Source of the DNA: Gracilariopsis chorda
Taxonomy: Eukaryota; Rhodophyta; Florideophyceae; Gracilariales; Gracilariaceae
NCBI GenBank assembly: GCA_003194525.1
Contig: NBIV01000302.1
Coordinates: 1-64,000, forward strand
DNA: 64,000 nucleotides
Direction of reading: 5' to 3'
Made by a program: the position numbers and the translations under genes
The notes under the pieces: generated by a model
The model's input: the letters and a program-made list of their open reading frames with translations, nothing else
Database searches by the model: none
Told to the model about the DNA's origin: nothing
Shown here: in pieces, positions 3,789 to 44,931 of the stretch
Layout of the letters: every line of letters starts with the position of its first letter
Position numbering within the stretch: the stretch's first letter is position 1

Positions 3789-3978
3789 CGTTGCCGCGCG
3801 AGCGGAGAGCGAAAGGAAAGGATAACAAGGCAAAGTCCGTCGAAGACGGGAACTCAACCGAGAAGCACCGTTCTAAACGGGAAAGTTTATTCAAGGGAGC
3901 AGCTAGCTCCCCACAATACTACACTACACTAACTGGCATAGCCAGGGAAAGAAGAACCAGGAAACTGGACCAGAGGTT

Positions 3979-4685
3979 TCACTCACCCCCATCGTCCGGG
4001 GCGTAACCCCCAGCAAGGCGGTAGGCCAACGCGTCCGCCATGGTGGTGACATCCCCCGATACCTCGGCAGCGCTAAGACCGGCACCCCGGAGGAAACGTG
4101 CGATGATTTCGTTTTCATTCGCCGTCACCCCGCTGGGGATAGAAGGTCCGGCACTTGCCGCCGAAGGGTCAGCAGCCGGCTCGGCCGGAGATGCCCCCTC
4201 TGGGAAAGCTTCCGCGCTAGCGCCGGTTTCCTCTACGTCCATCTCCCCGGGTTCTTCCGGTTCGTTATCGACCATTGGGTCATCCCCGCCGTATGCGCGG
4301 TAGTAGTCGTCTGAATCGACGTACCCCACCGGGTGGTCTTCCGGCACATGCCGGGGCGTATCGCGAAGCTCGCGCGCCTCCTCGGAGGATCCCACCGAAG
4401 GTGGTAATGCGAAGGGATGGTCGGCTTCAGCAGCCGTATTTCCCGGTTGTACCGGAGGTTGATCGCCCTGAGGCAGGGGAACCGACCGGAAACCGGTGGT
4501 ATATCGCCAGAGAGACCTCGGAGGTTGGCTGTGGTGGTGGATGTTGTTTGTCGGAGTACGCTCGGTGACGAGGAAGCGCGAAGGCGAGGCGAGGAAATGA
4601 CAGCTGCAGTAGCAGGAGGTATTGACTCTGGTGCAGAGGGATTTACCAGAGAACCGGAGACGGCGCACGCGCTTTTATCACCCAT
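3979..4685 (-). CDS. Element 1 antisense accessory ORF
   Basis: This ORF is on the strand opposite gag-pol, between the chromodomain stop (3788) and the LTR. The main frame (4668-3979, 229 residues) has a motif SVPLPQ near residue 62. It also has an acidic block at residues 96-140 (HVPEDHPVGYVDSDDYY, then DPMVDNEPEE), an Ala/Pro/Glu-rich stretch, and a C-terminal helix (ARFLRGAG, then EVSGDVTTMADAL). All are matched in Element 2. The first part may be read from another frame that starts at 4685. Relative to Element 2, about 160 residues between SVPLPQ and the acidic block are missing. No known domain is recognised; it does not resemble an envelope protein, having no signal peptide or membrane span. 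Function unknown. Confidence 0.7.
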
Positions 4686-5550: not shown

Positions 5551-5613
5551 TAGGACCAAGTTGACCCGCAGTATTATTTGCCGATTCTGCGAAGTTTGTG
5601 GAAGGGAGGAACG
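5551..5613. other. Sliver of pre-insertion DNA between Elements 1 and 2
   Basis: These 63 bp separate the end of the Element 1 LTR from the left end of Element 2. They are continuous with the DNA at 16635 if Element 2 is removed, and so probably belong to the 5' flank of the hAT transposase remnant. The last five bases, GAACG, are the left target-site duplication of Element 2. Confidence 0.7.
5609..5613. repeat. Left target-site duplication GAACG of Element 2
   Basis: The five bases directly outside the left LTR are identical to 16630-16634 directly outside the right LTR. Five bp is the usual length for Ty3/gypsy integrase. Confidence 0.93.
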
Positions 5614-6515
5614 TGTAGTGCAATACCCGCAAGCGGGACAACACACGAAGACGTTCGGAATCTTCCCCTCTGGAGGGTAACACAGCGAACGGAGCCTCTC
5701 CGGATGAGCACGACGAAGTCGGGTTGTAAAGCCGAGGCTCACCCTCACGCCAAGCGGGGAGAGTTGAAACGGTAGGATTAGGACCACCACGAATGAGAAA
5801 ACAGCCCTTCCAAGGAGTACGAGTCCACGTAAGTGGGAGAAGACGTCACGGGATACCGGCACGAGAGACACGCGTCAGCGGTGACGAGCAACCACACAAA
5901 GGGGTAGAAACCGCGAGAGTGGGGTAAGGGAAATACGGGGGATGCCCGATTGGGGGCGAGAGGGGTGTGGGCCAACGAGACCACGGAAAAAGGTACAAAG
6001 GAACCCTATACAGGGGCGAGAACACGGCGGTGGTGAATTAAGTGACAAGTGCCCAAGGCGGTGATACTCCTAGTGACGCAGGGTGGATAGGTCTACCGTT
6101 AGTCACGCGGCTTTACCTCCGAGGAGTGTAGAAGACTCGCGAAAGCGGAAAAGACTTAGAGCCAAGAACCCTGGTTGGGGAAGTTTACTCAGTGTCAGGG
6201 CGAGGTTGCCGAGCCACTATATAGTGTAGTAATCTCCCTACTGTAGCGTAGATAAATAATAAATAATAAATATAAGTTAACTAAATGTCCACACCGTGGT
6301 GCCAACCTCCTCTTGACTATCCGTGTCACACGTGGTCCACTCACGCCTTGGGCGGCACACGGCGCATGCACAGGTGTGCACCTGGCGCACAGTGCGGATC
6401 CGCTGAGGGCTGAGACACCCGTTAATAGCGGTAGTAATCATAAACACGCGAAAGCGGCAAAAACACCAAGTCCACAGGGCATCGCTGAGTCTTCCTCCTT
6501 GAGGATTGCACTTCA
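5614..6515 (-). repeat. 3' LTR of Element 2
   Basis: On the plus strand it runs TGTAGTGCAATACC to TTGCACTTCA. It differs from the right LTR at five sites (within GAATGAGAAA, CTATACAGG, AGAGCCAAG, AAGTTAAC and GCACAGGTG). It contains an AT-rich block at about 6251-6275 (ATAAATAATAAATA) and a perfect palindrome CACTATATAGTG at 6215-6226. Small ORFs inside it recur in the other LTR only because the DNA is repeated. Confidence 0.97.
6215..6226. promoter_or_regulatory. Palindromic TATA-like element CACTATATAGTG (3' LTR)
   Basis: A 12-bp perfect palindrome centred on TATATA, repeated at 16329-16340. Being symmetric, it could place TBP for either direction. Toward plus it lies about 325 bp upstream of the ATG of the antisense ORF at 6551. 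In the 5' LTR toward minus it lies upstream of gag. The AT-rich run at about 6251-6275 is an alternative TATA for the sense direction. Confidence 0.5.
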
Positions 6516-6527
6516 TATCCCCCTCCT
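6516..6527 (-). other. Polypurine tract of Element 2
   Basis: Read on the minus strand it is AGGAGGGGGATA, immediately before the TG of the 3' LTR. It matches the same site in Elements 1 and 3. Confidence 0.88.
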
Positions 6528-6550
6528 GAGGTGCGAATACGACATCCACG

Positions 6551-7746
6551 ATGGCGACGGAAGCACCGGGAAAGGTCCTTAAATGTAAGTCCGGTTCGCC
6601 GGTTCTCCATCCCACTCTGGGTAACGAGCACCTAGCTGCGAAAAGCGAATCTGCGACCAACTCTTCCGAGGTTCTCCCAACAACACGTACGCTTTCGCGG
6701 CCTTCTTCTCCGATTACTCGGCTTCCTTCATCTACGATGAACAACAACAACAACAACGGCAACAACAACAGCAACGCCGGCAGCAACACACCGTTACAGT
6801 ACTTCTCCGGATTTCATTCCGTGCCTCTACCGCAGAGCGGTCTCTCGACTCCTTCGCAACAAACACGCGCAAAGGCGAGTGCGGCTCCCACGGGAGGGTA
6901 TCTAATGGCAGCGTGGCCGTCGTACGACATGCTGGTCGGGCTGCAGCCTTCGCAACATGCGATGACTCTCCGGCTGGCGCCGTGGTTCCACCCGACTGCG
7001 GTGTTCAATGATGCGCTTCTGGCGATGTATACCGATGGAAACGGAATGCTCCCGGGTGACGTTCCGGCAATCGTGACCACTTCGTGGGATTGGCGCAATC
7101 GCATAGCGATACCCGTGCACACGGTAATCCGACGGGGTCGGGAATCAGCAGCTTCCGCGCACGCGGCGTTGGTCTTACTCGCTCATCAACGGCTTCGCCG
7201 GGCTCCCTTTGAGTATCCCATCCCCGATGGTATGGGCTCCGACATCGGATTGTATCGCACCCAAGGGGAAATGGGGTACCTCGACCGCCTCGCGGGTTTG
7301 GAACCACTCTTGTGGAGAAGCATTCCCGCGGCGCTGAGATCTCCGCGGAGGAAGCGAACGAGCTCCGGTTTGCACCGAGATATATCCCCGAGGGGCATCC
7401 GACCGGTTTTGTTGACGCCGATGAGTACTACAACGTCTACGACGGTGAGGATCCGATGTTCGACAACGAGCCCGACGAAGGTGCCGGTCACGCCGAGGCA
7501 GAGGGAGCACCATATGGTATGGATGCTCCTGGAGTCGCCCCTGCGAGTCAGCCGTCCAATCCGTCGGTCGGTCTTCCCACTGGTGGGCCCTCTACGCCAG
7601 ATGAGGCGAACGTGGCCCCTGCGGGTCAGGCTGCCGTGATCTCTCAGTTCCTCCGCCAAGTGGGGCTGGGAGGTAACGAGGCCAGTGGCGATGTCACCGC
7701 GATGCGGGATGCTCTGATAGCCCGACTCCAGGGAAATAACCACTAA
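6551..7746 (+). CDS. Element 2 antisense accessory ORF (one frameshift)
   Basis: It runs opposite to gag-pol and starts 36 bp inside the 3' LTR. The first frame (6551 to about 7310) has a Ser/Thr/Pro-rich N-terminus, an Asn run near 6738-6780, the motif SVPLPQ, and about 160 residues that look globular (GYLMAAWPSYDMLVG onward). A shift near 7310 leads to a second frame with IPEGHPTGFVDADEYY and DPMFDNEPDE, then a Pro/Ala-rich part, and the C-terminus ISQFLRQVG, EASGDVTAMRDAL, stop at 7744-7746. The blocks on both sides of the shift occur in the Element 1 homologue, so one protein of about 400 residues is likely. No family is recognised and no membrane span is seen. It ends 213 bp from the convergent chromodomain stop. 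Confidence 0.75.
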
Positions 7747-7959
7747 GGTGGGGGCAGTTCCAACCCGTAAGGGGGCGTGTTCCCTCACCATGAGGGTGCA
7801 ACCTTGTGACGTAGTGTAGTCCTTCGCCTAGTCGGTGTTCCATCGATCGTATCGAATAAAATCCGAGTTGACTTGTGTTCCTTCTTCTTTCCTTCCCTTT
7901 CTTCCTTTCCATACCACAACTCGATCCTTCATTTCCTTCCTTCCACCGCAGTGGCTTGC
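7747..7959. other. Convergent spacer between antisense ORF and pol
   Basis: This non-coding gap separates the stop of the plus-strand accessory ORF from the stop of the minus-strand chromodomain. Such a tail-to-tail spacer would hold the 3' ends of the antisense transcript. I see no clear polyadenylation signal; AATAAA occurs at 7855-7860 on the plus strand. Confidence 0.5.
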
Positions 7960-9497
7960 TTATCCCACTTGGGCGTTTATCACCGATGCCGGGATTCCCG
8001 TTCGCGTTCTGCGATGATATGACACCACTTTCGAACGTGGGAGGTGCTCTATCGGCTCATCCGAATCATATTCGGGCCCAAAACCGTACCAGCGTACGCG
8101 GTACTGGATGTAACCATCTGGATGGTAAGAATGTTCCACAATGTGGTCAACAACAAACTCCTGTTTGTAGACTTCCCGGCCTCGCCGTGTTCGCATTATC
8201 GCGTCCTGCACGGCAGGCTCTACCACCACTGGTGGGCGTTGGACAGTCTTCCCCGGAAGGGGCATGGCTTGGTACTGCCTGTCCATGCCCTTTGAGGGGT
8301 CATTAACCGGTTTCCGGGTAGGTTCATCCGTTTCGCGGGTCTGGAGGTCCTCGGCACGGCCGGTTGCGTCGACCACTTGATGGTGCGTATCGGGACCGTT
8401 GCTGTGGGTTAAAGTATCCCGCTTCGCGGTTTCTTCACTCCTTGAGGGGCGTCTATTGACGATAGCCTTTGAGGGGCTTCTAACGCATCTGAAAGATGAG
8501 CATCTGGGTCGCGAACCACAGGTTTGTGTGTAGATATCCGTCTTGACGGGGGTGCTTCAGACGACGAAGTCGGTTGCACCACGGTGCGTCGTACAGTACG
8601 CGTCGACTCGCCTCGGGCGGTAATTGGTGTCTTTGCCGTCCGTACGGTGTCGGGGTCACGTGCCGTTTGCAACGGATGGTCGAGGGTTGTCCGCGCCGTG
8701 TTGCGTTCCGCCTCCTCACGTGAGGGCGGTTGCAACGGTGCTGCCGGTGTGTTGTCTCGATTCGGCGACGAAGTATTTCCGTCTTTGACGTGCTTTCCTT
8801 TCGGAGTCACCGGTGTGACTTCGGCGACACTGTCGGGATCAACCGAGACACTCGGAGTGAGTTCGCGACTGCGCGATGGTCCTAAACCAGAATCCAGCTT
8901 GCTGGTCGTTTTCCTTCCGTCCTGTACGGTGTGCTTGCCCGGCCTGGCCGGTGTGTTCTGCCGTGCAGTAGGAGTTACCACGTTCGGTGTAGTCGGCTCA
9001 GAGGATCCCGCGAGGGCCTGCTCTGCATTATCCAGCATAGCTGTTGTTGACGAACCGTGACCCACGGAATGCGGATCAAAGCTCGACGGCACAGCCGGTT
9101 CAGTATCGCGAACGCGAATAGTTTCCTGCAACGATTTCACTTTGGCGAGAAACTTCCCACTGCGTGGTGCATTTCGACGACTAGAATCCCGGTGGGGAGT
9201 GCGATCTGGCGCAGATGCGGTAGAACTTCCTCGAGAGGGTTCAGCGGTAGCTGTAGCACGCAAATGCGAAGATGGCACGTCAGTAGACGGAATTCTCGGT
9301 CCACTATTGTCCTTTTCGATGTTTCCGGAGGTCCGTGCACCACGGTTGTCATGACGCGACGAAGCGGTTTCAGTGTTAGGGTCCTCCTCCCCCTCCTTAG
9401 ATGGAGCGGCATGGGGAGTGGTAGAAGCGCCCAAACTGCGGGGATAGACGCCGCGCAGTGGCGTTAGAGAAGAAAGGCCATTCGGGCCTGCGTCCAA
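7960..9497 (-). CDS. Element 2 pol 3' extension: disordered linker and chromodomain
   Basis: The linker (9497-8409, 362 residues) is Ser/Thr/Pro/Arg-rich with no fold. It starts in a different frame from pol. Comparison with Element 1 shows that a single G missing from a GGGG run near 9520 caused the switch, so the linker originally continued pol. A second shift near 8400 leads to the final segment (8376-7960). That holds a chromodomain: KQEFVVDHIVEHSYHPDG, VRWYGFGPEYDSDEPIEHL, aromatic residues in both halves, and the ending NAQVG. Chromodomains fused to chromoviral integrase are linked to targeting of chromatin. Here the domain is about 450 residues beyond the integrase core, unusually far. 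Confidence 0.82.
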
Positions 9498-12400
9498 TAA
9501 GGACGGTATATCTGAGAGTCCCTTGAAGGGTGTGGCAACACAGAAGGCCTGTTAACCACAGATGTGGGTTGTTCCACTGGGGTGTGTTGGTTCTCATCTT
9601 GGTAAGCAACCTCTACGGAGGGTGGCGGTGCCATAACAACGCGATCGCGGGAAATCCGCTCATGAGCGTCGTTCATTTCCACCACTAAGGTGTCGTTATC
9701 CACTGATATGACCTTGTAGGGACCGTCCGCGACGGGTGAGAGCTTATGCCGTTTCTCCTTATCAGGGTTCCAGTGCTCCTTACGGACGAAGACGTAGTCA
9801 CCCTCCTTAATTGGCGGTGCTGTACCTCGTACACGAGAGTCAAAATCACGCTTGTACGCGGCCTGTGCTCGTGCCATGGAGCTCCGGGCGACAGGGATTA
9901 ACTTCGTAAGCCACGCTTTCCATCGTTGGCGATAATCCTTCACGGAAGGGAAGTTTGCCAGCGTAGGCTGGGGTTCCAACGCTACGGCGGGCGGATGACG
10001 CGAAAGTACCAATTCAAATGCAGTCAAACCCGTTGTACGGTGTACCTGTGTGTTATACACAAACGTCAAGGCGTCAGTGTACAGGTCCCATGTTTTGGGG
10101 TGATCAGCAACGTAAGAACGGAGAGAGGCTAACAGCGTTCGGTTAAACCGCTCGACTTGCCCATTACACTGGGGGTGGTAGGTCGTTGTGAACAGATTCT
10201 TGATATCGAGAATCCGACACACGTCCTCAAAGAATCGCGATGCGAATTGCTTTCCGTTATCGGATAGAATGTTAACCGGTGGTCCGTAGACAAATACCCA
10301 ATGGGTGACGAAGGCTTGCGCCACCGCGAAAGCGGATATCTTCCGTAAAGGTACGGTGCGAACCAACTTGGAGAAACGATCCGTGATAACGAGTAAAAAC
10401 TTATGTCCACGCTTTGTGGTGAGCAGCGATCCCAAGAGGTCAATTGCGACAAACTCGAGAGGGGCCCGTGCTGGAAATAACTTCAACTTCGTTGAGTGCT
10501 TCCGGAGTTTGACCCGGTTTTTGGCACACTCCGTGCATGACCGCACAGTCGCGTAGCAGTCCACAGCCATGGCTGGCCAATAGTAACTCCGTCGCAACGT
10601 GAGGTAAAGTTTCCGTCCACCGGCGTGTCCACCAAGTTTCGCATAGTGCGACAAGTGCAGCACTCTAGATTGTATAGTATGCGGTACCACTACCTGTGGG
10701 GTTGTTTGAACCGTCCTGACGAGGTATCCAACATCATTCACCTCGAAAGGGAGTTGCGCACCGCCATTAAGTCGGGCGCGAATCTGAGTACAGAAGGGAT
10801 CACCTTGTTGTTCTCTGACCATCTCCTCCGGGGGTATTGGCACGAAATTACCCGGTGGGGGTTTCTGAGCATCGTCCGAGACGAGTAGTGCGTCCAGTTC
10901 ATCATCCGATTCCGGTTCTTCATCCGAGTTATCGGGTTCACGGTCCGGGTTCTCCGGTTCTCGACCGTCGACGACGAAGCAAGGAATGTCCTCGTCCCCA
11001 GCGGGTAGAGTTTCACCATCCGTGGGTAAACGCGACAGCGCGTCCGCCTGAGCGTTCTTTGTGCCCTTCTTGTAGATCACCTCGAAGTCGAATTCCGCAA
11101 GGCGGAGCCTCCAACGCATTAAGCGGCCTGACGGTTCAGAGACTGTCATGAGACATCGTAATGACGAGTGATCCGTGTAAACGGTGAAGTGCACACCCAT
11201 AAGATAGGGGCGGAGGGTGGAGAGTGCCCACACAACTGCAAGACACTCTTTCTCCGAGACGGAGTAATTCCGCTCGTGAACATTCAGTGAGCGTGACCAG
11301 TACCCAATAGGGGTTCGTTCGCCTTCGGGAGTTGTCTGAAAGAGAGCGCAACCTACTTGGTAGTCACTAGCATCTGTGTCTACGGTAAACGGTAGTCCGG
11401 GTTTCGGTAACGATAAGATCGATGCTGATGTTACAGCCTCCTTGAGGGAGTTAAACGCCTTCGTCTCGACGGACGTAAAGGGTTCCAATTTCGGTGGTTG
11501 GCCTTTCCGCAAGAGCGCGTTCAAGGGTGCTGAGATATCCGCACAATTCGGGATAAACCGTCGATAGACGTTGACTAATCCTAGAAAGGAGCGTAGTTCC
11601 GTTTGAGTGGCGGGTTCCTTCGCTTGGCGGAGCGACTTAACTCGAGCTTCCTCGATCATCACACGCCCAGGGCGGATTATGTGGCCCAGATACTTCACTG
11701 TATCTGTAAAGAACTCACATTTCCTCAACTTGAGAGTAACTCCAGCTTCACGTAGCGTGGTCATGATATCTCTCACGTGTGTGAGGTGGTCATCCAGATT
11801 ATCTGAGAATACTATGATATCGTCCAGGTAGACGAGGCATGTACGCCATTTGAAGCGAGCCAGTAGTATGTCGATAGCACGCTGGAAAATAGCGGGGGCA
11901 TTGGTCAAACCAAAAGGCATCCGTTTGAGACGGTAGAGTCCGGAGTGACAGACAAAAGCAATCTTGTCGCGGTCCTGTTCCCTGACGGGCACCTGCCAGT
12001 ATCCCCAATTGGCGTCTAGAGCCGTGAAAACGGTAGCATTTCCGAGTGAATCGATGTACTCATCCATTCGTGGGATCGGGTACACATCCTTGATGGTTAC
12101 GGCGTTCAGTCGACGGTAGTCGATGCAAAAGCGCCAGGATCCATCCGGTCTCGGAGCCAGTACCACTGGGGATGCCCACGGTGACTGAGCCGGTTCTATT
12201 ACTCCAGCTCGGAGCATCTTTTCCACTTGGAATTCTTCCTCTTCTCGAGCTTTAGGGCCTGCCCTATAGGGGTGCTGAGCGATCGGCCTGGTATCAGGTA
12301 GCAAGTCAATCCGGTGCTCCGTTGTAGTAATCTCCCCTAGGGAGCCATCCCACATCGTGGTGAAATTCCGTAGCATCTCACGGAGACGTTCACGGTGCGA

Positions 12401-13534
12401 TTCCGGCACATGACCGAGGTCAGGTTCCTCGAGTTCTTTCACGGGATCAATCCGGTCGTAACTCGTTGGAACCGGCTTAGCATCCGAGCATTTCGGCATT
12501 TGGACGGTAGTGTCCTCCCCCTCTTTAGAGTGAACGAGACCGAGGACATCGGCGGCGGTCATTCTCGTGGGAACCATCGCGGTGGGGTGGGGCATTACCG
12601 AACCAATGACTTGGTTTTTCACCAGTGACTGGGGCGTAGAGCCTAGATTGGCGACCAGCACGTTGAACGGTTTGTCGGGCTCAATTTGAGCTACTCCATT
12701 CGCCACGGCGAGTTGATACCTATCATATAAGGATGAAAGGGGTTGAATTACTCGTAAACCGTGTTGACGGGAAGTGACTCGTACCCAAACCTGAGATTCC
12801 GGGGGAAGTTGGACAGACGCGGCAACGCAGAGCTTTGTAGAGTCCCGGGAAGCCGGTGGGGGTTCCTGCGCAGCAGGTAATGGAACGTGCTTCTTCGAGG
12901 CACGTCGTAGAGGACGACGTACGATCGAAACGGAGGAGCCGTCTTCCATTTCCACACGTCTTAGACGGGGCCTGATGGCATCGACGAATCTGTCACAGAA
13001 GTCGCATCCCAAGTTCAAAGGGGCGGCAAGTTTCCCACAAACAATAAAGTTGAGTTTCACAAGAAAGGTTCCAAGGCGCACGACCAGGTCGATTGTCCCA
13101 ACCGTTGATAACGGGTTATCATTCGCGTCCGCGACATCCGGTATCACGCCATGGCGCATCTGAGACTGCAATGACGGTGGCAGGAGCGACCCAACGATGA
13201 AGTTCGGGCCTGCACCTGTGTCCAAAACAGTGAGAACTCGCACCATAAACTGGGTGGAAAGGCCAAGGTCAGCATATACCTTGTAGTTTCTCTTGGCCAT
13301 TACCAAAACTCTGTCCGGGAACCGGTTGTTTCGAACACGTTTCCACGGTCGACGCAGAACACTAAAGTGTTCAGAGTTCACGTCTGAGACGGCCTGTTTC
13401 CTAGTAAGGATTTTGACCGGGGAGCGAGGCAGTGACGCCTCAGGCGCCTTCAACCTCAACTCTGAGGGCGCCTCTCCCGTAAGGGAGACTCCCGAAATCA
13501 GTATTCCTGAGCCCGTTCCGCCTGAGGCGGGGTC
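9464..13534 (-). CDS. pol: Element 2 pol: protease, RT, RNase H, integrase
   Basis: Domains in order (residues counted from 13459): retropepsin with VLDTGAG at 78-84; reverse transcriptase with FTALDANWGYWQVPV near 478 and YLDD at 544-547; RNase H with VDTDASDYQVG near 693; integrase with a zinc-binding region (HLSHYAKLGGHAGG near 935, CTEC at 975-978) and a DD35E core D1007, D1067, E1103. There is no in-frame ATG at the beginning. The frame is open from 13534, overlaps the end of gag by 37 nt and is -1 relative to it, so pol is probably made by -1 frameshifting. This 4-kb frame is uninterrupted up to the indel near 9520. Order PR-RT-RH-IN is Ty3/gypsy. Confidence 0.95.
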   Translation of the reverse strand, partial: DPASGGTGSGILISGVSLTGEAPSELRLKAPEASLPRSPVKILTRKQAVSDVNSEHFSVLRRPWKRVRNNRFPDRVLVMAKRNYKVYADLGLSTQFMVRVLTVLDTGAGPNFIVGSLLPPSLQSQMRHGVIPDVADANDNPLSTVGTIDLVVRLGTFLVKLNFIVCGKLAAPLNLGCDFCDRFVDAIRPRLRRVEMEDGSSVSIVRRPLRRASKKHVPLPAAQEPPPASRDSTKLCVAASVQLPPESQVWVRVTSRQHGLRVIQPLSSLYDRYQLAVANGVAQIEPDKPFNVLVANLGSTPQSLVKNQVIGSVMPHPTAMVPTRMTAADVLGLVHSKEGEDTTVQMPKCSDAKPVPTSYDRIDPVKELEEPDLGHVPESHRERLREMLRNFTTMWDGSLGEITTTEHRIDLLPDTRPIAQHPYRAGPKAREEEEFQVEKMLRAGVIEPAQSPWASPVVLAPRPDGSWRFCIDYRRLNAVTIKDVYPIPRMDEYIDSLGNATVFTALDANWGYWQVPVREQDRDKIAFVCHSGLYRLKRMPFGLTNAPAIFQRAIDILLARFKWRTCLVYLDDIIVFSDNLDDHLTHVRDIMTTLREAGVTLKLRKCEFFTDTVKYLGHIIRPGRVMIEEARVKSLRQAKEPATQTELRSFLGLVNVYRRFIPNCADISAPLNALLRKGQPPKLEPFTSVETKAFNSLKEAVTSASILSLPKPGLPFTVDTDASDYQVGCALFQTTPEGERTPIGYWSRSLNVHERNYSVSEKECLAVVWALSTLRPYLMGVHFTVYTDHSSLRCLMTVSEPSGRLMRWRLRLAEFDFEVIYKKGTKNAQADALSRLPTDGETLPAGDEDIPCFVVDGREPENPDREPDNSDEEPESDDELDALLVSDDAQKPPPGNFVPIPPEEMVREQQGDPFCTQIRARLNGGAQLPFEVNDVGYLVRTVQTTPQVVVPHTIQSRVLHLSHYAKLGGHAGGRKLYLTLRRSYYWPAMAVDCYATVRSCTECAKNRVKLRKHSTKLKLFPARAPLEFVAIDLLGSLLTTKRGHKFLLVITDRFSKLVRTVPLRKISAFAVAQAFVTHWVFVYGPPVNILSDNGKQFASRFFEDVCRILDIKNLFTTTYHPQCNGQVERFNRTLLASLRSYVADHPKTWDLYTDALTFVYNTQVHRTTGLTAFELVLSRHPPAVALEPQPTLANFPSVKDYRQRWKAWLTKLIPVARSSMARAQAAYKRDFDSRVRGTAPPIKEGDYVFVRKEHWNPDKEKRHKLSPVADGPYKVISVDNDTLVVEMNDAHERISRDRVVMAPPPSVEVAYQDENQHTPVEQPTSVVNRPSVLPHPSRDSQIYRPYWTQARMAFLL

Positions 13535-15612
13535 TCAGAATCCTGAACCACTAGCAGTGGAGCGCTAGCGGGGGTGTCTTGTCGAACAAGACGGGGGTTA
13601 GTGACCTGCTCAGCAGGGGAAAGCAACGCGTGTCGTGGGTTCGTATCCGGGATATTCCGGGGGAAGTCCGTCTTCGCTCGTAAGTACGATGCAATCGGAA
13701 CGGTCTGCTTCTCCGCTGGAGTAAGGGCTTCATAGTTACCGATCACTCGGGTTACCTCTCTCAAAGTGAGGATGCAGTCCGGTGAAATGTGACCGTGTTC
13801 GTAACATATGTGGCATATGACTCCAGAGCGTGGGGGCGGCTGACCGGAACGAGCATCCGTGTGTCTCACCGCTGGTCGGGTATCCTTCCATCCGGGACGA
13901 CTCTGCCGGAGGGCACCATTCGAATAGGGGATGCGAGGTGCGTGAACACGGGGTCCGTCAACATACAGCAGGGAATTCTCCTGAGCTGTGTCGTAGGAGG
14001 CATCCGTCGTGGACGGCAGTTCCGTTGTCGGAATAGACTGAGCACCGGCCTGAGCGAGGTAAACGTTATCGTAGTCCCTTGAAGGGCGTCCACTCGCTGC
14101 TAGCGATAAAGATGGTGAACTGGCTTCCATCATCAACGCCTTGGCGGGACGAGACTTCGATGCAGGGATACGAGCTCGAAGTGCATCACCTTCCGCTTGC
14201 GCGTGTTGAATCAACTCCAGGTAGGTGGTGTTACGACGATCCTCCCGATATCGGGCCACCAGCATACGGATTGCCGGATCCAATCCATCGATGTACATGG
14301 TGCAGCGCTCTCCAGACGAGTAAACATTGCCACACCTGTGGAAAGCCTTATTAAGGCGTACCGAGAATTCGGTTTCCGTCTCTCCAGATTTCTGGCGGGT
14401 ATCGCGTAAAGCGAGAATAGCCGCTTGAATAGCGTTGTTCGTCGCGTAGGATCGCAAGAGGTACTGAACCGCTTCCGGCCAGCACGTTACACCTCCTTCG
14501 GAGGCTCGAGAAGAACCTCTTACAGAGTTGTATTGATCCTCGGCGAGGCCACGTAGAAAATACGGTAGGGCAATAAACGCCTGTCCTTCGTTCATACCAA
14601 GTATGTCCGCTTCGGAAACGAACCTTCCGAGGAAGTCTAACACAAATATGGGATCCTCTCCAGAAAAGGACTGGTTACGAAGGGAAAGCTGCATACGCTT
14701 TACGCAGTCCTTCACCTTACCCGTACCGCGGGGTGTACGATCCAATGAGGAGTCCTCAAGCCGATAATATCGGTACGATACCAACCTCTTGTAGAGGGGA
14801 TTAGTACATTTGAGTTCCCTCAATCCTAAGTGTTTCCTTCCCTTCCTCCGGGGGCGAATCACACCTTGGGTGGAAGAAGACCGTTTAGAATGGGAAGGGC
14901 GTCGGCGACGATCATCGTCCGACGAAGAATCCGACGACACCGAACCATCTGAATGGTGAGAATCCTGTGAAGACAGGGAGGAATCCGAAGAGTCGGGATC
15001 GTGCTTGGGCTGCTTCTTACGAGTGCGGCGGGTAGAATCTTTCTTCTCGCGCTTCTCTTTTTGCGAGACAGCAGCGGCCTCACCCGGGACGTTGTCATCC
15101 ATCAAGATAGTTTGCTCCAACGTCCTCAGACGGGCACTGACACGATCAAATCGGGTTTCCACATTCTCAACATAGTTGGCAGGGCCACCAAAACATTCCA
15201 ACACAGTGTTGACATCCGCCCTTAAAAGGCGAATGTCCTCAGCCAAATCCTTCATAGAAGAGGTATCAAACCTCACACGCAGGACTTCAAAATCCTCCAC
15301 GAGGGCATTGTGTGCTTCACGCATCTCCTCAAGCTGCGCTTGGACACTAGGGGGGGCGTCGGTATCGGGGTCTCCCCTCCGGGGTGCAGCTACATCGGCA
15401 GAAGCCGGGTCGACACCAGAGTTGGGAGCGTCCTTCAACGCCTTAGGCGGGGCTTTCTGGGCTCTCGACGAGTCTTGGCCCTTCGACTTGCCTCTCAAAG
15501 TGGCACGTCGAGGGTGGCCAGCGGGGACCTTCGAGATCTCTGCCTGTTCCACGTCACTGACGGAACGACTCCGCGTGACAACGGGTTCGGCGGAGGATGG
15601 TCGCCGAGACAT
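13498..15612 (-). CDS. gag: Element 2 gag
   Basis: The first ATG of the frame is at 15612 (MSRRPSSAEPVV), about 115 nt after the 5' LTR; the frame upstream starts only with TTG. About 704 residues. A charged, low-complexity N-terminal third contains a coiled region (TSSMKDLAEDIRLLRADV). Then come a Ser/Asp/Lys-rich stretch and the capsid-like core (QSFSGEDPIFVLDFLGRF to TETEFSVRLNKAFHRCG). A zinc knuckle CHICYEHGHISPDC (CX2CX4HX4C) lies near the C-terminus, for packaging genomic RNA. The stop is at 13498-13500. The gag core is shared with Element 4 (SGEDPTSALNFLTRFHS). Confidence 0.92.
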   Translation of the reverse strand: MSRRPSSAEPVVTRSRSVSDVEQAEISKVPAGHPRRATLRGKSKGQDSSRAQKAPPKALKDAPNSGVDPASADVAAPRRGDPDTDAPPSVQAQLEEMREAHNALVEDFEVLRVRFDTSSMKDLAEDIRLLRADVNTVLECFGGPANYVENVETRFDRVSARLRTLEQTILMDDNVPGEAAAVSQKEKREKKDSTRRTRKKQPKHDPDSSDSSLSSQDSHHSDGSVSSDSSSDDDRRRRPSHSKRSSSTQGVIRPRRKGRKHLGLRELKCTNPLYKRLVSYRYYRLEDSSLDRTPRGTGKVKDCVKRMQLSLRNQSFSGEDPIFVLDFLGRFVSEADILGMNEGQAFIALPYFLRGLAEDQYNSVRGSSRASEGGVTCWPEAVQYLLRSYATNNAIQAAILALRDTRQKSGETETEFSVRLNKAFHRCGNVYSSGERCTMYIDGLDPAIRMLVARYREDRRNTTYLELIQHAQAEGDALRARIPASKSRPAKALMMEASSPSLSLAASGRPSRDYDNVYLAQAGAQSIPTTELPSTTDASYDTAQENSLLYVDGPRVHAPRIPYSNGALRQSRPGWKDTRPAVRHTDARSGQPPPRSGVICHICYEHGHISPDCILTLREVTRVIGNYEALTPAEKQTVPIASYLRAKTDFPRNIPDTNPRHALLSPAEQVTNPRLVRQDTPASAPLLVVQDSETPPQAERAQEY

Positions 15613-15702
15613 GTGTAGACCAAAAACTCCCACGAAATGGTAAGAAACCAAAAGTTTGGACAGTGAATCTCCGAGGAGAGGTAATACAAAACCTAACCGT
15701 TT

Positions 15703-15724
15703 CCGATTCTAGGTCGGGAGACCA
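15703..15724 (-). other. Primer binding site of Element 2
   Basis: Three bases after the 5' LTR the minus strand reads TGGTCTCCCGACCTAG and continues AATCGG. Its complement ends in CCA, with a discriminator A, a 7-base acceptor strand TCGGGAG and a T-stem strand CTAGG. This is exactly the layout of a tRNA 3' end. I cannot name the isoacceptor from the window. Confidence 0.8.
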
Positions 15725-15727
15725 CTT

Positions 15728-16629
15728 TGTAGTGCAATACCCGCAAGCGGGACAACACACGAAGACGTTCGGAATCTTCCCCTCTGGAGGGTAACACAGC
15801 GAACGGAGCCTCTCCGGATGAGCACGACGAAGTCGGGTTGTAAAGCCGAGGCTCACCCTCACGCCAAGCGGGGAGAGTTGAAACGGTAGGATTAGGACCA
15901 CCACGAATGGGAAAACAGCCCTTCCAAGGAGTACGAGTCCACGTAAGTGGGAGAAGACGTCACGGGATACCGGCACGAGAGACACGCGTCAGCGGTGACG
16001 AGCAACCACACAAAGGGGTAGAAACCGCGAGAGTGGGGTAAGGGAAATACGGGGGATGCCCGATTGGGGGCGAGAGGGGTGTGGGCCAACGAGACCACGG
16101 AAAAAGGTACAAAGGAACCCTATAAAGGGGCGAGAACACGGCGGTGGTGAATTAAGTGACAAGTGCCCAAGGCGGTGATACTCCTAGTGACGCAGGGTGG
16201 ATAGGTCTACCGTTAGTCACGCGGCTTTACCTCCGAGGAGTGTAGAAGACTCGCGAAAGCGGAAAAGACTTAGAGTCAAGAACCCTGGTTGGGGAAGTTT
16301 ACTCAGTGTCAGGGCGAGGTTGCCGAGCCACTATATAGTGTAGTAATCTCCCTACTGTAGCGTAGATAAATAATAAATAATAAATATAAGCTAACTAAAT
16401 GTCCACACCGTGGTGCCAACCTCCTCTTGACTATCCGTGTCACACGTGGTCCACTCACGCCTTGGGCGGCACACGGCGCATGCACCGGTGTGCACCTGGC
16501 GCACAGTGCGGATCCGCTGAGGGCTGAGACACCCGTTAATAGCGGTAGTAATCATAAACACGCGAAAGCGGCAAAAACACCAAGTCCACAGGGCATCGCT
16601 GAGTCTTCCTCCTTGAGGATTGCACTTCA
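15728..16629 (-). repeat. 5' LTR of Element 2
   Basis: Direct repeat of 5614-6515, 902 bp, with five substitutions and no indels. It should drive gag-pol transcription toward the minus strand. The palindromic TATA is at 16329-16340. Confidence 0.97.
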
Positions 16630-16634
16630 GAACG
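16630..16634. repeat. Right target-site duplication GAACG of Element 2
   Basis: Identical to 5609-5613 and directly outside the right LTR. Confidence 0.93.
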
Positions 16635-20210: not shown

Positions 20211-20880
20211 TAGGAGCAGAGGTGCAATGGTCGAGAATGGTTGGAAGTCGATGGTGATGATCCGAGTTGAAGTTCGGAGCACCCATCGGAGTTTATATAG
20301 AGGGTCTAGCCTAGTCCTATCAGTGCCACTAGTTAATGAGAAATCGTCCGTGTTTAATGGCATTATGCTTGGTCTACTTGTTGGCTTCCATACGTGGGTG
20401 TTTTACCGTTTTCAATACCAGATCTAGCCGTTTAATGACTTGGAGATTTTCGCAGCTCATGACTTGTTCTAAGACTTCGCAAGGATCAGCAGCGGACAGG
20501 GTTTTGATGATCTGGCATGACCCGAAGGTGCTCATGATGATTTGGAAGAGATCTCTCGGGAGCCTTCTATGACCGTTTGATCATTGCTGTAGCGTGCGAG
20601 GTGTTTGTCAACCTTTGAAGTAGTAGGCGAAGTGTGTTTTGGAGCCAAATTTGTCCACGTGGTCGGTCGGGGCATTTCTGACATAAGCATGTTGTCGTGT
20701 CATATTGACAGTATGTCACAAAAGATGTCAACTCGGCTTTGAGGTTAGGTAGACATGTCAAAAAGGTAACCGATCTCTTCATGAGATCAAGTAGAATGAA
20801 AATAGGAAAGGTAGACACGTTAGAACTGATTCTGGAGCAAACTATACTCAAACAAGGTAAAATAGTAAGTAAATCTAACA
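20208..20880 (-). repeat. 3' LTR of Element 5 (673 bp)
   Basis: The outer edge in sense is TGTTAGATTT at 20880, directly after a purine tract; the other end is degenerate (TAATAGG on the plus strand at 20208). A TATA box (CTATATAAAC in sense) lies near 20293-20302. The same LTR recurs at 37643-38315 and, inverted, at 28224-28873, so three copies of the family are in the window. Confidence 0.85.
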
Positions 20881-20895
20881 TCACTCTCCCCTAAC
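20881..20895 (-). other. Polypurine tract of Element 5
   Basis: Minus strand AGGGGAGAGTGA lies immediately upstream of the LTR start TGTTAG. It identifies 20208-20880 as the 3' LTR. Confidence 0.75.
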
Positions 20896-20939
20896 AGTAG
20901 AGTTGACCCCACTGGTAAGTATTCATAACAAAGATATCC

Positions 20940-22800
20940 TTAGAGTCGCACAAACCCAGATTCTGGAGGAAGTGGGAACAGGTCTCGTTGAGAGTCAGGT
21001 TCCAAGGTGAATGGGACTTGACTTTCATCCTCCAAGCGATTTACGATTTCACCAATTCCCTCCGTAAAACTTCGTTCACCAGTGAGGTGCCCGTACCGTG
21101 CGACCATATAGTAGAAAAGATGCATTTCAACTCTATCATCCGAAATCGTCAGAATTCCGCCATCGTAGTTGAAGAAAAGTCGGTGCTGAAGCATGTCGTT
21201 TTCGTCAGTGTAGAAAGGTTCACGATTTTGGACGAATTACAAGGATATATGACACGCTGCCCAGCAAAGAAGTACTCGAATTTCTTCGATGCCGGTGATT
21301 TCACCCATCCATTTATATAATGATCTTCCACCGAGGTTGATATTGTTGTAGAATTCCCTTGTGCCCTCAATATCGGAGTTCCGATTCATGCTGAGGGCTG
21401 GTTGATACTGAATGCTTAGTTTCTTCTCGGTAGGATTCCGTTCGACTTCTAACACTGCCGGAGAAGTGCTTTGCAGTTCGTGAGGTCTTTCTACTTCATC
21501 CAATTGCTCTCATGACTTGGATATCCGAGCCATTTGACAAGAAATTCATATCGTCTGCCCTTTTTTCTGTGCTTGACAATACCTTCTACTTCATACTCTT
21601 CTGTCCCATCTCTCAATGTTACTGCGGTTGGATGAGCTGGCTCTGGGCGAATTGACTTGTCTTCTCGGTACGGCCTGAGAAGGCTCGCGTGGAACACATC
21701 ATGAGTCTTTGACTTCATCGTAGGGCTTAAGTCTGGACAAAATATTACTGGGCCAGGTTTTTCTATGATCTTGAATGGCCCGCAGTATGAGGTTCGTAGA
21801 TTGGACTTCTTCCCCATGTGGTCCGTCTTGAGGTTTTTTATGGACAACATGACTTTTTGCCCAATTTTCAACGTGCAAGGAGATCGATTCTTGTCGGTGT
21901 ATGACTTCGAATACCGATTTTGTCTTTCAATCTGTGTTCTAGCTTCCTTTAATGCTTCCTTCATGCTTTTTACGAACTTGAGAGCAGCATCATATCCTGA
22001 GATGAGAGTATCGAGCGGTAGTACTCTTGGGTGGTCACCATACGTTAGGAAGAATGGTGAGAACTTCGTACTTCAGTTCTCTGACGAGTTGTATGCGACT
22101 TCGAACTCTATGAGGCGCTCATCCCAATTGGATTGCTTGAGGTTGACGTATGCTCTAATCATTTCTTCGATTTTCCTGTTCATTTCTTCGGTTGGACCAT
22201 CTGTTTGTGAATGATATGCTGCTGACGTCTTTATCTTAAGGGCAATGAGACGGAATAGTTCTTTCCAAAAGTTGCTCATAAAAACCTTTCCCCTGTCGGA
22301 GATAATAACTTGGGAAAGTCCACGATGTCTGTATATATGTTTAAAATATAATTTTGCAGTCTGAACGGCAGTGAAATCGGATGTAGTTGAAATGATTATT
22401 CTGATCAACTTGGATTGGCGGACTACTACTACGTACAATGCACTTTTCCCATTTTTCGTTTTAGGAAGCGGTGTGATGAAGTCCATTGTAATTTTTGCCC
22501 ACTTCCTCTTCGGCGGCGGTAATGGTTGTAGCTGATCCTGTGGTTTTGTGGTTCTTGATTTCGTTTCTTGGCATTTCAGACATGAGTCGACGGATTTTTC
22601 AATCGTATGGCGTAACGATACCCAGTGGTATAGCCTGCGAATTTTTTCCTCTGTCTTTTTGAATGCTAGGTGTACTGACACAGGTTGATCGCGGTGATCT
22701 TGTAGTAGCTTCAGTCTTACTTGGCTTCGGTACGCAGAGTTGTCTTTCTTTACACAAGAATCCGTTTCGTTTGTGAAATGGGCCTTGTGGACATATGTAT
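20940..22800 (-). pseudogene. Element 5 integrase with C-terminal chromodomain
   Basis: The integrase core at 22681-22073 holds CLKCQETKS (end of the HHCC finger), TMDFITPLPK (first Asp), SQVIISDRGKVF (second Asp) and YHSQTDGPTEEMNR (Glu region). After a frameshift, the integrase C-terminus (21964-21491) has the GPF module (SYCGPFKIIEKPGP) and HDVFHASLLRPY. It ends in the chromodomain EEYEVEGIVKHRKKG, FLVKWLGYPSHESNW. Fragments of a further tail continue in other frames to 20940. This is the classical chromovirus layout, with the chromodomain directly after GPY/F. Confidence 0.85.
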
Positions 22801-22935
22801 AAGTTTTTGAACTCTTTGTCGTTTAGATATCTGTTGATGAATGCGCGCGTATTTTTTTGGATACTTCACCAAGCTGGGAAACCCCATTGGCTTTGGAAGT
22901 TCTGAAAAAAGCTTCCTGGAGTAATGACCGGTTCA

Positions 22936-24288
22936 TCAATTTTGAGTTTTCAGCATGTTTTGGGTATCGTGAAAACGCATCTGCGACAACGTTGGATTTC
23001 TCTTTGATCTGCTGAGAAAGAAGTCAAATTCCACGATTTTTTCCAGCCAGCGTACCTGTCTTTGAGATACGTTTGGTTGACATTCAAGATAATTCAAAGG
23101 GTAGTGGTCTGTACATACTGAGAACGTTTGGCCATGAAGGTACACTCTCCATACTCTTAGCGTGTTTATGACTCCCAAGCGTTCTCTCCGATGGGCGGCA
23201 TAACGTTTTTCTGCTGCGTTCAATGTTCTTGACGAGAATGCTACAGGTCGTTTAACATTATTTTCAACCTGTTCGATGACAGCTCCAACGGCGTATTGAG
23301 AAGCGTCGGTAGTAACGATAATGGGTAGTTTTGGGTCAAAGTGTCCGAGTACTGGGGTTCTCGTTATGGCTTTCTTCAGAGACTCAAAACTCTCAATTTG
23401 TTCTTGATTTTATTGAAACTGGGATTTTTGGCATATTTTGGTCAATGGTTTTGATATTGCGGAAAAGTTCTTTATAAATCTTCGGTAGTACTTTACTAAC
23501 CTGAGAAAAGCCTGGACGTTGGTTTTGGTTTTAGCTGTGCTCCAATTCAAAATTGCATCAACTTTCTGCTCCTCGACGGATATATCTTCTCCACTTACAA
23601 TGTGTCCTAGGTAGTCAACCATCTTTTTCATGAACTTACAATTTGAGAGCTTCCCATAAATCTTGTGCTCCTGCAGTTTGTCGAATACACATATGAGATG
23701 TTTGAGATTTTTCTCTCCGTTTGTACTATATATAAGAATGTCATCTAGATATACTAGGACGAACATATCTAAGTACTCTCGTAATACTCTACTCATCAGG
23801 CTCATAAACGAAGCTGGCGCATTGGTAAGACCGAAGGGAAGTACAAGGAACTCAAAGTGACCATATCTTTTACGAAAGGCTGTTCTAGTAACCGACTGCT
23901 CGCAAAGCTTTATTTGATGATAACCTGAACGGAGATCTGTTTTCGAGAATATTCTAGCTCCACTTAACTGATCGAGTATTTCATCAATCCTTGGTATAGG
24001 ATAGCTCTTCTTCACTGTTACTTGGTTCAAGCCTCCGTAGTTTACGCATAGCCTTAATGGCCCATCTTTCTTCGCCATGAACAGTACGGGTCCACCCCAA
24101 GGACTTGGGCTCAGTTGGGTGAAACCCTGCTGAAGTATATCGTAGAGTGGCTTACGCAGTTCTATAAGCATTTTATCCAACATTCGATAAACTCCTTTCT
24201 TTAGTGGTGTAGAATCGAGTAGTAAGTCGATGATAAAGTCTTGTTCTTGTTTCGGGGGTAGTCGTTTTGGGAATATTTCGGGAAACAC
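22936..24288 (-). pseudogene. Element 5 reverse transcriptase and RNase H
   Basis: RT (24288-23410) contains YPIPRIDEILDQLSGA, FSKTDLRSGYHQI (catalytic Asp), FGLTNAPASFMSLM and VLVYLDDILIYS with the YLDD active site, then the thumb and connection. It stops at 23410. RNase H continues in other frames: TTDASQYAVGAVI-like residues near 23300, and AAEKRYAAHRRERLGV to HYPLNYL at 23223-22936. Frame breaks near 23410, 23230 and 22990 inactivate it. Confidence 0.87.
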
Positions 24289-24294
24289 ATCTTT

Positions 24295-25973: not shown

Positions 25974-26050
25974 AAATGTACGATGTCATCAAGTGGTTTC
26001 AGTCCGCAAATCCGAAGTTTAAAATCTCCAGTTCGAATCCCTTCGCTGTA

Positions 26051-27521: not shown

Positions 27522-27536
27522 TACCCCCTTTTTTGG
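27522..27536 (-). other. Polypurine tract of Element 4
   Basis: Minus strand AAAAAAGGGGGTA, directly before the LTR start TGTATTACAG. Confidence 0.75.
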
Positions 27537-29151: not shown

Positions 29152-29377
29152 GCGCTGACATAGCCTGCACGGACCCAGTTAGTAAATTCAATAAAGTTAT
29201 CCCTTAGTTGTCACAGCAGTTCCATCTAAAATTACTGTCAAATTGTGTCCATTAGTCCGTATAGGTGCGAAAAGAAACGAAGACAAACCTGTAGGGTAGT
29301 AAAATATGTGTCTCCTGTAGGTGTAGAAAGCCAGGATAGACCATTGTGGGTCCCCCCCCTTTCTTTAACGAAAACAC

Positions 29378-43228: not shown

Positions 43229-44931
43229 TTATCTCGACGAGTGACCTGCACCAGAGCAACTGGTTTTTGGACGATAGTTCGCCACGGCGAGAGCCAAGAG
43301 CTTTCCAGCATCTACCATGTCCGGAGGTACTGGGATTCCAAGGTTTTGGAGGTTCTCGCGCAACGTGATGACATGAGGGTCCGTTACAACCGTAAGTGGC
43401 CCGTCGTCTACAGGTTGCAGCTCACTCATCTGAGATACGAGGCCCCAACTCTCGGGAGCACCCGCCTGGCTGGACGTACCTGCGTTGCCTGGAACAACCG
43501 AATCCATGACCGGTCCATGGTAAAGGCTACCACTCTCGTTGGCCTCGTCATCCATCATCAGATCATTGAAGTCGACTGACGGTTCATAATTGTCATGAAA
43601 TATGAATCCTGTCCGATTACCCGCTGGTATGGTCCGCGGAAGACTGCCTTGATCAAATGCATGAGCACGGGATACCGTTGCACCCACATACTGGTCGTAA
43701 TAGACGAAGTAACCAACAGTTGGATGCCGGTGACCCGGAGATTTGTCACGAGGATTTCTTGGTTCCTGACTACGGTTATCCCACGGAACGGTATCCCAGT
43801 TGACCTGGTTGATCACATCCAAGATGTATAAGACTTCTTCCAGGTTCTCTTGGCATCCCAATGGGATTAAGAGGTCGAGCTGTTTGATGATGTTCCTTAA
43901 CATTGATGATATGACCCAAAGACGGTAGTGGTCATACGCTTCCCTAAAACGCAAAACCGCTACGTGGGTATTCTACTCTGCGGCAATAAGCGACCAATAA
44001 CCGGATTTCGTACCATCAATGATATGGGAACTTATGTAAGTTAAACAGAGAGGACGTTCCGGAAAACAACCCTTCAGTACCTCAACCTGACGCCACCACG
44101 GTGGTAAGGCTGCGAAGCGACCCCTGAACGTTTGCGAGAGATACAGTTCGGTTTCGATATTGGTGTATGGAATCAAATACCCATGCCGGGAACGCGCCTT
44201 GCACGCAAACAGAATCTTCTCGGAGAACGCCGCTTGCGTTTCAGAACGTCGGAGGAACCGAACCTCCGCAGGGATCATGAGTCTCACCCAACTGAGCATA
44301 TCGGACTACATCATTACCTGCGTTGCGGATTCGAAGTGTGCCGTATCGAACTGGGCCAGGTTATCCCCATAAGATCCTTCGCCGTAGGTGCCATACCTCG
44401 ATACGTCGAAGTCGTATTCACTGGTAATCAGATGTTGATTTCGAGTACGCATGAGCTGTTTATACGTGAGTCACGTCATTTCTTCTCGATCCCTATCCAG
44501 GTTCTCTTCATGGCAGAGGTCTATCTTTAAAAGGTTAGGATCCAACGCAATGGGTCCCCGCCAATCGCTTGAAGTGACCACGTCAAGCGGAAGCCTACCA
44601 TGGGAAAACATCGTCGTGTGCGTAAGACTGGATTAGTGGCAGGTTGAAAATCTGGGACGGGCAAAATCAAAGAGCGCAGGCATAGATCGAAGGATTCTGT
44701 AACGGATCCCGTGCTTCCAGGGTTACCCTGTGGACTGACCAAAGTTGGTTTATAACAAGTACCCTGAGAGTAGTGCCACGCGCGGATGTGTACTGGAACA
44801 GTTATAGTAGCGTTACAGTGACGCAATGGAGCCGTAGGAAACCGGCTCAGTCCTGAGGATGAAGTAGCTATACTCCCAGAATGGGAAGTACCCACTCCGT
44901 GGTTTTGTTGGTTGAGATTCTCTGAGTTCAT
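43229..44931 (-). pseudogene. Element 3 antisense accessory ORF
   Basis: Opposite to pol and tail-to-tail with the chromodomain. Frame A runs 44931-44527 (MNSENLNQQNHGVG, Ser/Thr-rich). Frame B runs 44299-43229 with one nonsense codon near 43972 and one long open part (43954-43229). Residues 99-140 of that part (LPRTIPAGNRTGFIFHDNY, then DLMMDDEANE) align with the acidic block of Elements 1 and 2 (IPEGHPTGFVDADEYY, DPMFDNEPDE). The C-terminal LRENLQNLGIPVPPDMVDAG fits their final helix. Similarity is modest. The full gene may have exceeded 500 codons. A TATA box lies at 45030-45038, about 100 bp upstream of the ATG at 44931. Confidence 0.6.

What the first reader, a model, noticed from the sequence alone, without database searches (positions are those of the whole stretch)
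3979..4685. A conserved gene antisense to gag-pol in Elements 1, 2 and 3
At 3979-4685 (-), 6551-7746 (+) and 43229-44931 (-), each element has an ORF opposite to its own pol, between the chromodomain and the 3' LTR. Elements 1 and 2 share SVPLPQ, an acidic block (HVPEDHPVGYVDSDDYY versus YIPEGHPTGFVDADEYY; DPMVDNEPEE versus DPMFDNEPDE) and the helix EVSGDVTTMADAL versus EASGDVTAMRDAL. Element 3 keeps a weaker form (TIPAGNRTGFIFHDNY, DLMMDDEANE). Conservation between divergent copies, while third positions and linkers have drifted, suggests selection on a protein. Extra ORFs, some antisense, are known in plant Tat-lineage elements; this one resembles none I know.
Basis: partly seen in the sequence, partly recalled or inferred. 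Interest (0 to 1): 0.9.

Follow-up and report, generated by a model that had tools for sequence, protein, structure and literature searches.

The report
Antisense protein gene in algal retrotransposons
Several families of jumping genes in a red seaweed carry, on the opposite strand and right beside one end, an extra gene for a roughly 600-residue protein of no known family; its sequence shows that natural selection has kept it, so these elements seem to use both of their DNA strands to make proteins.

Summary
The window lies in a Gracilariopsis chorda assembly (red alga). Element 2 (5614-16629) is a Ty3-type element with a chromodomain, near-identical LTRs and a target-site duplication. Its antisense gene starts 35 nt inside the 3' LTR edge and runs towards the end of pol. 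Element 2 lacks 628 nt of it, element 1 lacks 1098 nt. Intact copies elsewhere in the genome encode 595-615 aa in four sequence groups; the best conserved part is the core, which element 1 has lost wholly and element 2 by more than half.

Purifying selection is clear: ML omega 0.226, omega = 1 worse by 271 log-units. An integrase hit lies 2.2-3.0 kb downstream on the opposite strand in 101 of 160 places, on the same strand in none. Relatives occur in Agarophyton chilense and unnamed contigs. No Pfam, NCBIfam, PHROG or PDB family matched. The G. chorda proteins are very poor in lysine.

Best reading: an antisense accessory protein from a 3'-LTR transcript, acting in trans, probably on element expression; like HBZ or plant antisense aORFs in logic, but with neither's known domain. 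Expression and function are not shown.

The parts
6551..7334 (+). Element 2 antisense gene, 5' part: ATG at 6551, N-terminus plus first part of the core, up to the deletion junction
   Evidence: matched by full-length copies such as L011 at 98% over residues 1-263
7335..7746 (+). Element 2 antisense gene, 3' part, in another frame after a 628-nt deletion: end of core, acidic linker, C-terminal segment, stop TAA 7744-7746
7855..7860 (+). AATAAA, candidate poly(A) signal of the antisense mRNA, 109 nt after the stop
   Evidence: at the same distance in 11 of the 12 intact family-2 copies
5614..6515 (-). Element 2 3' LTR (gag-pol orientation is -); candidate antisense promoter
   Evidence: 897 of 902 positions identical to the 5' LTR, TG...CA ends
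15728..16629 (-). Element 2 5' LTR
5609..5613 (.). 5-bp target-site duplication, left copy; right copy at 16630-16634
   Evidence: same 5 bp on both sides
6516..6527 (-). Polypurine tract next to the 3' LTR; the antisense ATG lies just beyond it
7960..8556 (-). Element 2 chromodomain-coding ORF (end of pol); its stop is 213 bp from the antisense stop (convergent)
   Evidence: PF00385, E 3e-06, 27.5 bits against cut-off 25.1
9464..13534 (-). Element 2 pol: RT, RNase H, integrase
   Evidence: Pfam RVT_1, RT_RNaseH, Integrase_H2C2, rve
13498..15708 (-). Element 2 gag ORF
   Evidence: position and a sub-threshold zinc-knuckle trace only
3979..4685 (-). Element 1 antisense gene, internally deleted (1098 nt in frame, 43 nt out of frame); keeps N-terminus, acidic linker and C-terminal segment
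4742..5613 (+). Element 1 3' LTR (start read from the PPT/LTR boundary; end not determined)
3886..3891 (-). AATAAA 88 nt after the element 1 antisense stop
43229..44931 (-). Element 3 antisense gene, decayed copy broken into several frames; its 3' 247-codon piece matches 87 listed places at 37-39%, most often in frames that the tool reports as 643 aa

Best explanation
These chromodomain-bearing Ty3-type elements carry a second, antisense transcription unit. Shown: a protein of about 600 aa is encoded convergently to gag-pol, with its ATG 35-57 nt inside the inner edge of the 3' LTR in the three families read there, and it is under purifying selection. Inferred from the anatomy: the only upstream sequence that belongs to the element is the polypurine tract and the 3' LTR, so the mRNA should start in the 3' LTR read backwards, run through the ORF and end at an AATAAA that in two families lies 88 or 109 nt past the stop, just before the end of pol. 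Inferred with less certainty: the product is a soluble accessory protein that acts in trans on the element's expression or its nucleic-acid/chromatin complexes. It has a variable N-terminus, a conserved core rich in Arg and aromatic residues, a mostly acidic linker and a short conserved C-terminal segment.
For: Full-length ORFs of 595-615 aa in four sequence groups. In six full-length examples the antisense frame has 0 stops and the five other frames have 8-23 each. Omega 0.226; omega = 1 worse by 271.5 log-units. L069-L079 pair: dN 0.185, dS 0.93, codon-position differences 110/79/259; core omega 0.157, N-terminus 0.336. Position and orientation: an integrase hit 2.2-3.0 kb 3' of the match on the opposite strand for 38 of 73 and 63 of 87 places, same strand 0. 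LTR end and polypurine tract directly upstream of the ATG in families 1, 2 and the L075 family. AATAAA after the stop in family 1 (4 of 4 copies read) and family 2 (11 of 12 intact copies). Relatives in Agarophyton chilense and in unnamed contigs. The parts differ in charge: in the five G. chorda proteins scored the tail has pI 4.1-4.2. Trans action is suggested by copies that multiplied after losing the core.
Against: No transcript or protein was seen. Copies without the core have multiplied (11 places at 98-100%, window included), so the core is not needed in cis and may be dispensable. No DNA-binding domain was recognised. The promoter has no shared signature: a TATATA at -333 in family 2 (element 2 and L011), none in element 1, a TATAAA at -15 in L075. 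No AATAAA in the 117-219 nt read after the stop in L073, L075 and L079, nor within 250 nt in element 3. The core is not basic in all relatives (pI 5.2-9.4 over 14). Omega among young copies is 0.27-1.4.
Confidence: 0.5

Rival explanations
1. Structural or entry (env-like) protein: the antisense gene supplies a particle or membrane component.
For: Its place between pol and 3' LTR is where env-like ORFs of plant elements sit (PMC7264820, passages).
Against: env-like ORFs are sense, this one is antisense. The highest 19-residue Kyte-Doolittle mean is 0.95-1.45 in the five G. chorda proteins scored; two of the 14 scored (P0004, P0009) reach 1.71-1.72, so there is no clear membrane span, but it is not excluded in those. 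No structure or family match.
Confidence: 0.08
2. Self-limiting factor: the antisense protein (or its core-less short form of N-terminus plus acidic tail and C-terminal segment) restrains its own element's copy number, and the antisense RNA adds to this by pairing with gag-pol RNA.
For: The orientation gives a transcript complementary to the 3' part of the gag-pol RNA. The short form is reported as a 263-aa open frame in 8 places (read in full in L081). PMC7264820 raises dsRNA-mediated control as an option (passages).
Against: Selection at the amino-acid level shows that a protein matters, not only RNA. No functional data.
Confidence: 0.22
3. Captured cellular or viral enzyme (transposase, nuclease or similar) that helps integration or replication.
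For: A core of about 355 aa that holds 26 of the 27 invariant columns among 14 sequences is large enough for an enzyme.
Against: The invariant columns contain one Asp, no His and no Lys; the columns at 90% or more add one Asp and one Cys, so no DDE, PD-(D/E)XK or zinc signature that I can recognise (these signatures are recalled). No match in Pfam, NCBIfam, PHROGs, PDB, phage records or IMG/VR.
Confidence: 0.12
4. No protein function now: an old antisense gene that persists as passenger sequence.
For: Core-less copies multiply, and long frames are reported around the integrase hits next to some of them. Omega between young copies of family 2 is 0.27-1.4, as for drift after insertion.
Against: Between families whole-gene omega is 0.07-0.23 where it could be estimated, with dS saturated in the most distant pairs, and intact frames were read in four sequence groups.
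Confidence: 0.04

Closest known systems
Antisense aORFs of plant Retand/Tat-lineage elements (Grande gene23, RIRE2, Retand; TRP28 domain)
   Same: Antisense to gag-pol, between pol and 3' LTR, kept in most copies and in several species; function unknown (PMC11963269 abstract and passages; PMC7264820 passages and sections 5 and 7).
   Different: Retand elements are non-chromoviruses; here pol ends in a chromodomain. PF04195 (TRP28) was not hit by any of 14 members at E <= 1. Grande gene23 has a promoter in its upstream region within an unusually long 3' region; here the ATG is 35-57 nt from the LTR.
HTLV-1 HBZ and other 3'-LTR-driven retroviral antisense genes
   Same: Antisense gene whose only upstream element sequence is the 3' LTR (PMC10186651, abstract and outline only).
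   Different: No bZIP or other Pfam domain, a larger protein (size of HBZ recalled), a Ty3-type algal element; antisense transcription is not shown here.
Boty of Botrytis/Sclerotinia (antisense extra ORF)
   Same: A non-plant LTR element with an antisense ORF between pol and 3' LTR (PMC7264820 section 5).
Chromoviruses (Ty3/gypsy with chromodomain)
   Same: gag, RT-RNaseH-INT order, chromodomain at the end of pol, LTRs, 5-bp TSD, PPT.
   Different: The extra antisense gene; by titles and abstract starts my paper searches listed no description of it in chromoviruses or red algae.

Membership tests
Chromovirus (Ty3/gypsy) | RT-RNase H-integrase order in pol | tested here: met
   Pfam hits in that order
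Chromovirus (Ty3/gypsy) | Chromodomain at the C-terminal end of pol | tested here: met
   PF00385 above cut-off in 7960-8556; in element 2 it sits in another frame than the rest of pol
Chromovirus (Ty3/gypsy) | Placement in the chromovirus clade of an RT tree | not tested
   No tree with named reference elements was built
Retand-lineage TRP28 antisense ORF | TRP28 domain PF04195 | tested here: not met
   Not among hits at E <= 1 for 14 members
Retand-lineage TRP28 antisense ORF | Antisense, between pol and 3' LTR | tested here: met
Retand-lineage TRP28 antisense ORF | Carried by a non-chromovirus element | tested here: not met
   chromodomain present
3'-LTR-driven antisense gene (HBZ type) | Antisense ORF whose upstream element sequence is the 3' LTR | tested here: met
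   ATG 35 nt inside the LTR edge in element 2
3'-LTR-driven antisense gene (HBZ type) | Transcript start mapped in the 3' LTR | not testable with these tools
   needs RNA data
3'-LTR-driven antisense gene (HBZ type) | bZIP domain (HBZ itself) | tested here: not met
   no bZIP among Pfam hits at E <= 1
env-like gene | Sense orientation | tested here: not met
   antisense
env-like gene | Transmembrane span | tested here: inconclusive
   KD19 at most 1.45 in the five G. chorda proteins scored, 1.71-1.72 in two of nine relatives; no dedicated predictor
Boty-type antisense ORF | Sequence homology with the Boty protein | not tested
   its sequence was not at hand

The most novel reading that the evidence does not exclude
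An old protein family carried by red-algal chromodomain elements (and perhaps by other hosts) is encoded antisense and driven by the 3' LTR of the element. It would be a trans-acting regulator whose extreme shortage of lysine protects it from ubiquitin-dependent turnover, and whose core-less in-frame short forms, spread by their own elements, act as competitors of the full-length protein. That would be a built-in regulator with its own antagonist, like HBZ in logic but unrelated in sequence.
Probability: 0.15. Interest if true: 0.8.

Novelty: new variant of a known kind. Interest (0 to 1): 0.62.

Why it matters
Antisense extra genes of LTR elements are known in flowering plants, in fungi (Boty) and in some retroviruses, and in plants their function is open. 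Here a separate protein family holds the same place in chromodomain-bearing Ty3-type elements of a red alga, with measured purifying selection. That suggests antisense coding next to the 3' LTR arose more than once and is useful. The many copies in several families and the natural core-less variants make a good comparative system for asking what such genes do. These ORFs also go unrecognised in annotation: the one deposited full-length copy seen here is a 'hypothetical protein'.

Tried and rejected
Tried without result: Pfam, NCBIfam and PHROGs scans (only scattered sub-threshold hits), PDB sequence and profile searches (best E 0.45), phage records by tblastn, IMG/VR by profile (12 pattern matches, none confirmed). 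A shared promoter signature was sought and not found.

Considered and rejected: (a) chance open frame opposite a coding frame: the gag-pol-sense frames over the ORF carry 8-23 stops each in six full-length copies; (b) a gene that only flanks the elements: it lies inside the LTR pair of element 2 with target-site duplications and at a near-constant distance from integrase; (c) a spliced gene explaining the frame change in element 2: full-length copies have one open frame and the change is a deletion; (d) P0001 as a domesticated single host gene: its family has five further places at 93-96%.

Results against my reading: core-less copies multiply; within family 2, omega of many pairs is near 1, and L076-L079 gives 0.49-0.59; 35 of 73 and 24 of 87 places had no integrase hit in range, but both integrase lists were cut at 150 matches, so absence says little. 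The 87 are all listed rows at 37-39% identity; the other listed rows (40-100%, many of them fragments or copies with stops) were left out of that count. Sequence L076 in the codon test is a truncated frame of 461 aa.

Full report
WHERE IT IS. The window is part of a 91.3 Mb assembly in 1081 contigs. Protein P0001, named 'hypothetical protein BWQ96_03215 [Gracilariopsis chorda]', matches contig C30 of this assembly at 100% over residues 1-491, and the contig length listed for P0001 (445,473) is that of C30. The host is therefore Gracilariopsis chorda, a florideophycean red alga.

ELEMENT 2 GIVES THE ANATOMY. Two LTRs, 5614-6515 and 15728-16629, agree at 897 of 902 positions and are flanked by the same 5 bp. 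On the minus strand come gag (13498-15708), pol (9464-13534) with RT, RNase H and integrase, and a chromodomain ORF (7960-8556). On the plus strand the antisense gene has its ATG at 6551, 35 nt inside the LTR edge and just past the polypurine tract, and its last stop at 7746, 213 bp before the chromodomain stop. The two units converge.

THE WINDOW COPIES ARE BROKEN. Searching the own genome with the pieces showed that many matches lie in frames of about 600 aa. Against full-length copies, element 2 lacks 628 nt, which changes the frame, and element 1 lacks 1098 nt in frame plus 43 nt out of frame. Element 3 is broken by stops. Of the 30 loci fetched, 12 hold a frame from the family start codon to the family C-terminus (600-614 aa); a thirteenth, L025 (599 aa), ends in a shifted tail. 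Intact frames were also read in family 1 (L069-L072, 595 or 615 aa), L075 (613 aa) and L079 (608 aa).

IS IT SELECTED? Eight natural copies from four sequence groups (L076 truncated) were codon-aligned. ML omega is 0.226 (log read); with the MG model, log-likelihood is -9687.3 with omega free and -9958.9 with omega = 1. Copies L069 and L079 have dN 0.185, dS 0.929, omega 0.199, with 110, 79 and 259 differences at codon positions 1, 2 and 3 over 586 codons. By region in that pair, omega is 0.336 (N-terminus), 0.157 (core), 0.264 (acidic linker) and 0.132 (C-terminal segment). Between the more distant families dS is saturated or could not be computed. Within family 2 many pairs have omega near 1 (range 0.27-1.4), as expected for young insertions; L076-L079 gives 0.49-0.59. 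The other five frames over the same DNA carry 8-23 stops in each of six copies.

IS IT ALWAYS ANTISENSE? I took the 73 places and the 87 listed rows at 37-39% identity and looked for integrase hits within 6 kb on the 3' side. 38 of 73 and 63 of 87 have one on the opposite strand, 2.2-3.0 kb from the end of the match; none has one on the same strand. The hit lists are capped, so these are lower bounds. Directly upstream of the ATG the LTR end and polypurine tract are seen in families 1, 2 and the L075 family, 35-57 nt away.

THE FAMILY. Relatives from the protein database are P0001 (48%), P0002-P0004 (35-39%), two partial Agarophyton chilense proteins and P0007-P0012, found with P0004 (31-51% to P0004). 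Agarophyton is in the same family, Gracilariaceae. The hosts of P0002-P0004 and P0007-P0012 are not named. The 14-sequence alignment has 27 invariant columns, all but the start Met in the core; they include no His, no Lys and one Asp. Composition over those 14: core with 32-43 Arg, tail with pI 4.1-5.4 in 13 of 14 (11.0 in P0012).

LYSINE. The seven full-length G. chorda proteins counted have 1-7 lysines in about 600 residues. K/(K+R) is 0.02-0.13, against 0.36 for pol, 0.28 for gag and 0.26 for the chromodomain ORF of element 2. Against codon-position base composition the shortage has P of 8.6e-05 to 9.7e-04 in four of six copies and 0.04-0.07 in two; the six are related, so these are not independent. 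Other relatives have 0-0.23 (all). I can only speculate that this lengthens protein life.

CORE-LESS COPIES. In one search, 11 places (window included) match the core-less element 1 form at 98-100%, and 8 more (91-96%) have a 263-aa frame reported; L081, one of the 8, reads as N-terminus joined in frame to the acidic tail and C-terminal segment. Of these 19 places, 11 (the window copy among them) have a listed integrase hit 2.4 kb away on the opposite strand; in the 10 outside the window the tool reports frames of 602-1875 aa around it. So the core is not needed in cis. Either it is supplied in trans by full-length copies or it is dispensable.

WHAT IT PROBABLY DOES. Shown: a selected protein gene, antisense, beside the 3' LTR. 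Inferred: transcription from the 3' LTR, trans action, a regulatory or nucleic-acid/chromatin-related role. The nearest parallels in logic are HBZ (PMC10186651, abstract and outline) and the plant aORF-3Rs, whose functions are unknown and for which a regulatory role is proposed (PMC7264820, sections 5 and 7 and passages; PMC11963269, abstract and passages). It is not a TRP28 protein by Pfam, and the element carries a chromodomain, unlike Retand elements.

IN PRINT? My searches of the held library listed no paper on an antisense gene in red-algal or chromodomain-bearing LTR elements; for all but the three papers named above I saw listings and abstract starts only, and subscription journals are mostly missing.

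Noticed in passing
L011, L033, L069, L072, L075, L079, P0001 (full-length antisense proteins): Extreme shortage of lysine (1-7 in about 600 aa; none in the core of L011, L069 and P0001) while arginine is normal and pol/gag are not depleted.
   Followed up: partly
window 3979-4685; L080-L082: Core-less antisense genes form their own amplified subfamilies, one of them with a continuous 263-aa frame. A short repeat at the two deletion edges would fit template switching in reverse transcription (flanks seen).
   Followed up: partly
window 7960-9551: For 12 of the 34 listed pol copies the tool reports a frame of 1856-1871 aa (with stops counted inside some), whereas element 2 has a pol frame of 1356 aa and the chromodomain in another frame: its pol seems to be frame-shifted near the end.
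   Followed up: partly
window 6215-6226: The element 2 LTR has a self-complementary stretch around TATATA that could be read in both directions; no TATA match in element 1.
   Followed up: no
P0001 against G000:C231, C2, C219: Genomic relatives of P0001 run in one frame across a stretch that the deposited protein lacks, so the deposited gene model may hold a false intron.
   Followed up: no
window 50664-52202: Open frame with DHH, DHHA1 and two CBS stretches, a combination worth annotating in a red alga.
   Followed up: no
window 49605-50543: Open frame with weak PPR-repeat matches below the curated cut-off.
   Followed up: no
window 20211-38082: Further direct and inverted repeats at 20.2, 27, 28.6, 36.9 and 37.6 kb point to other related elements, not analysed.
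   Followed up: no
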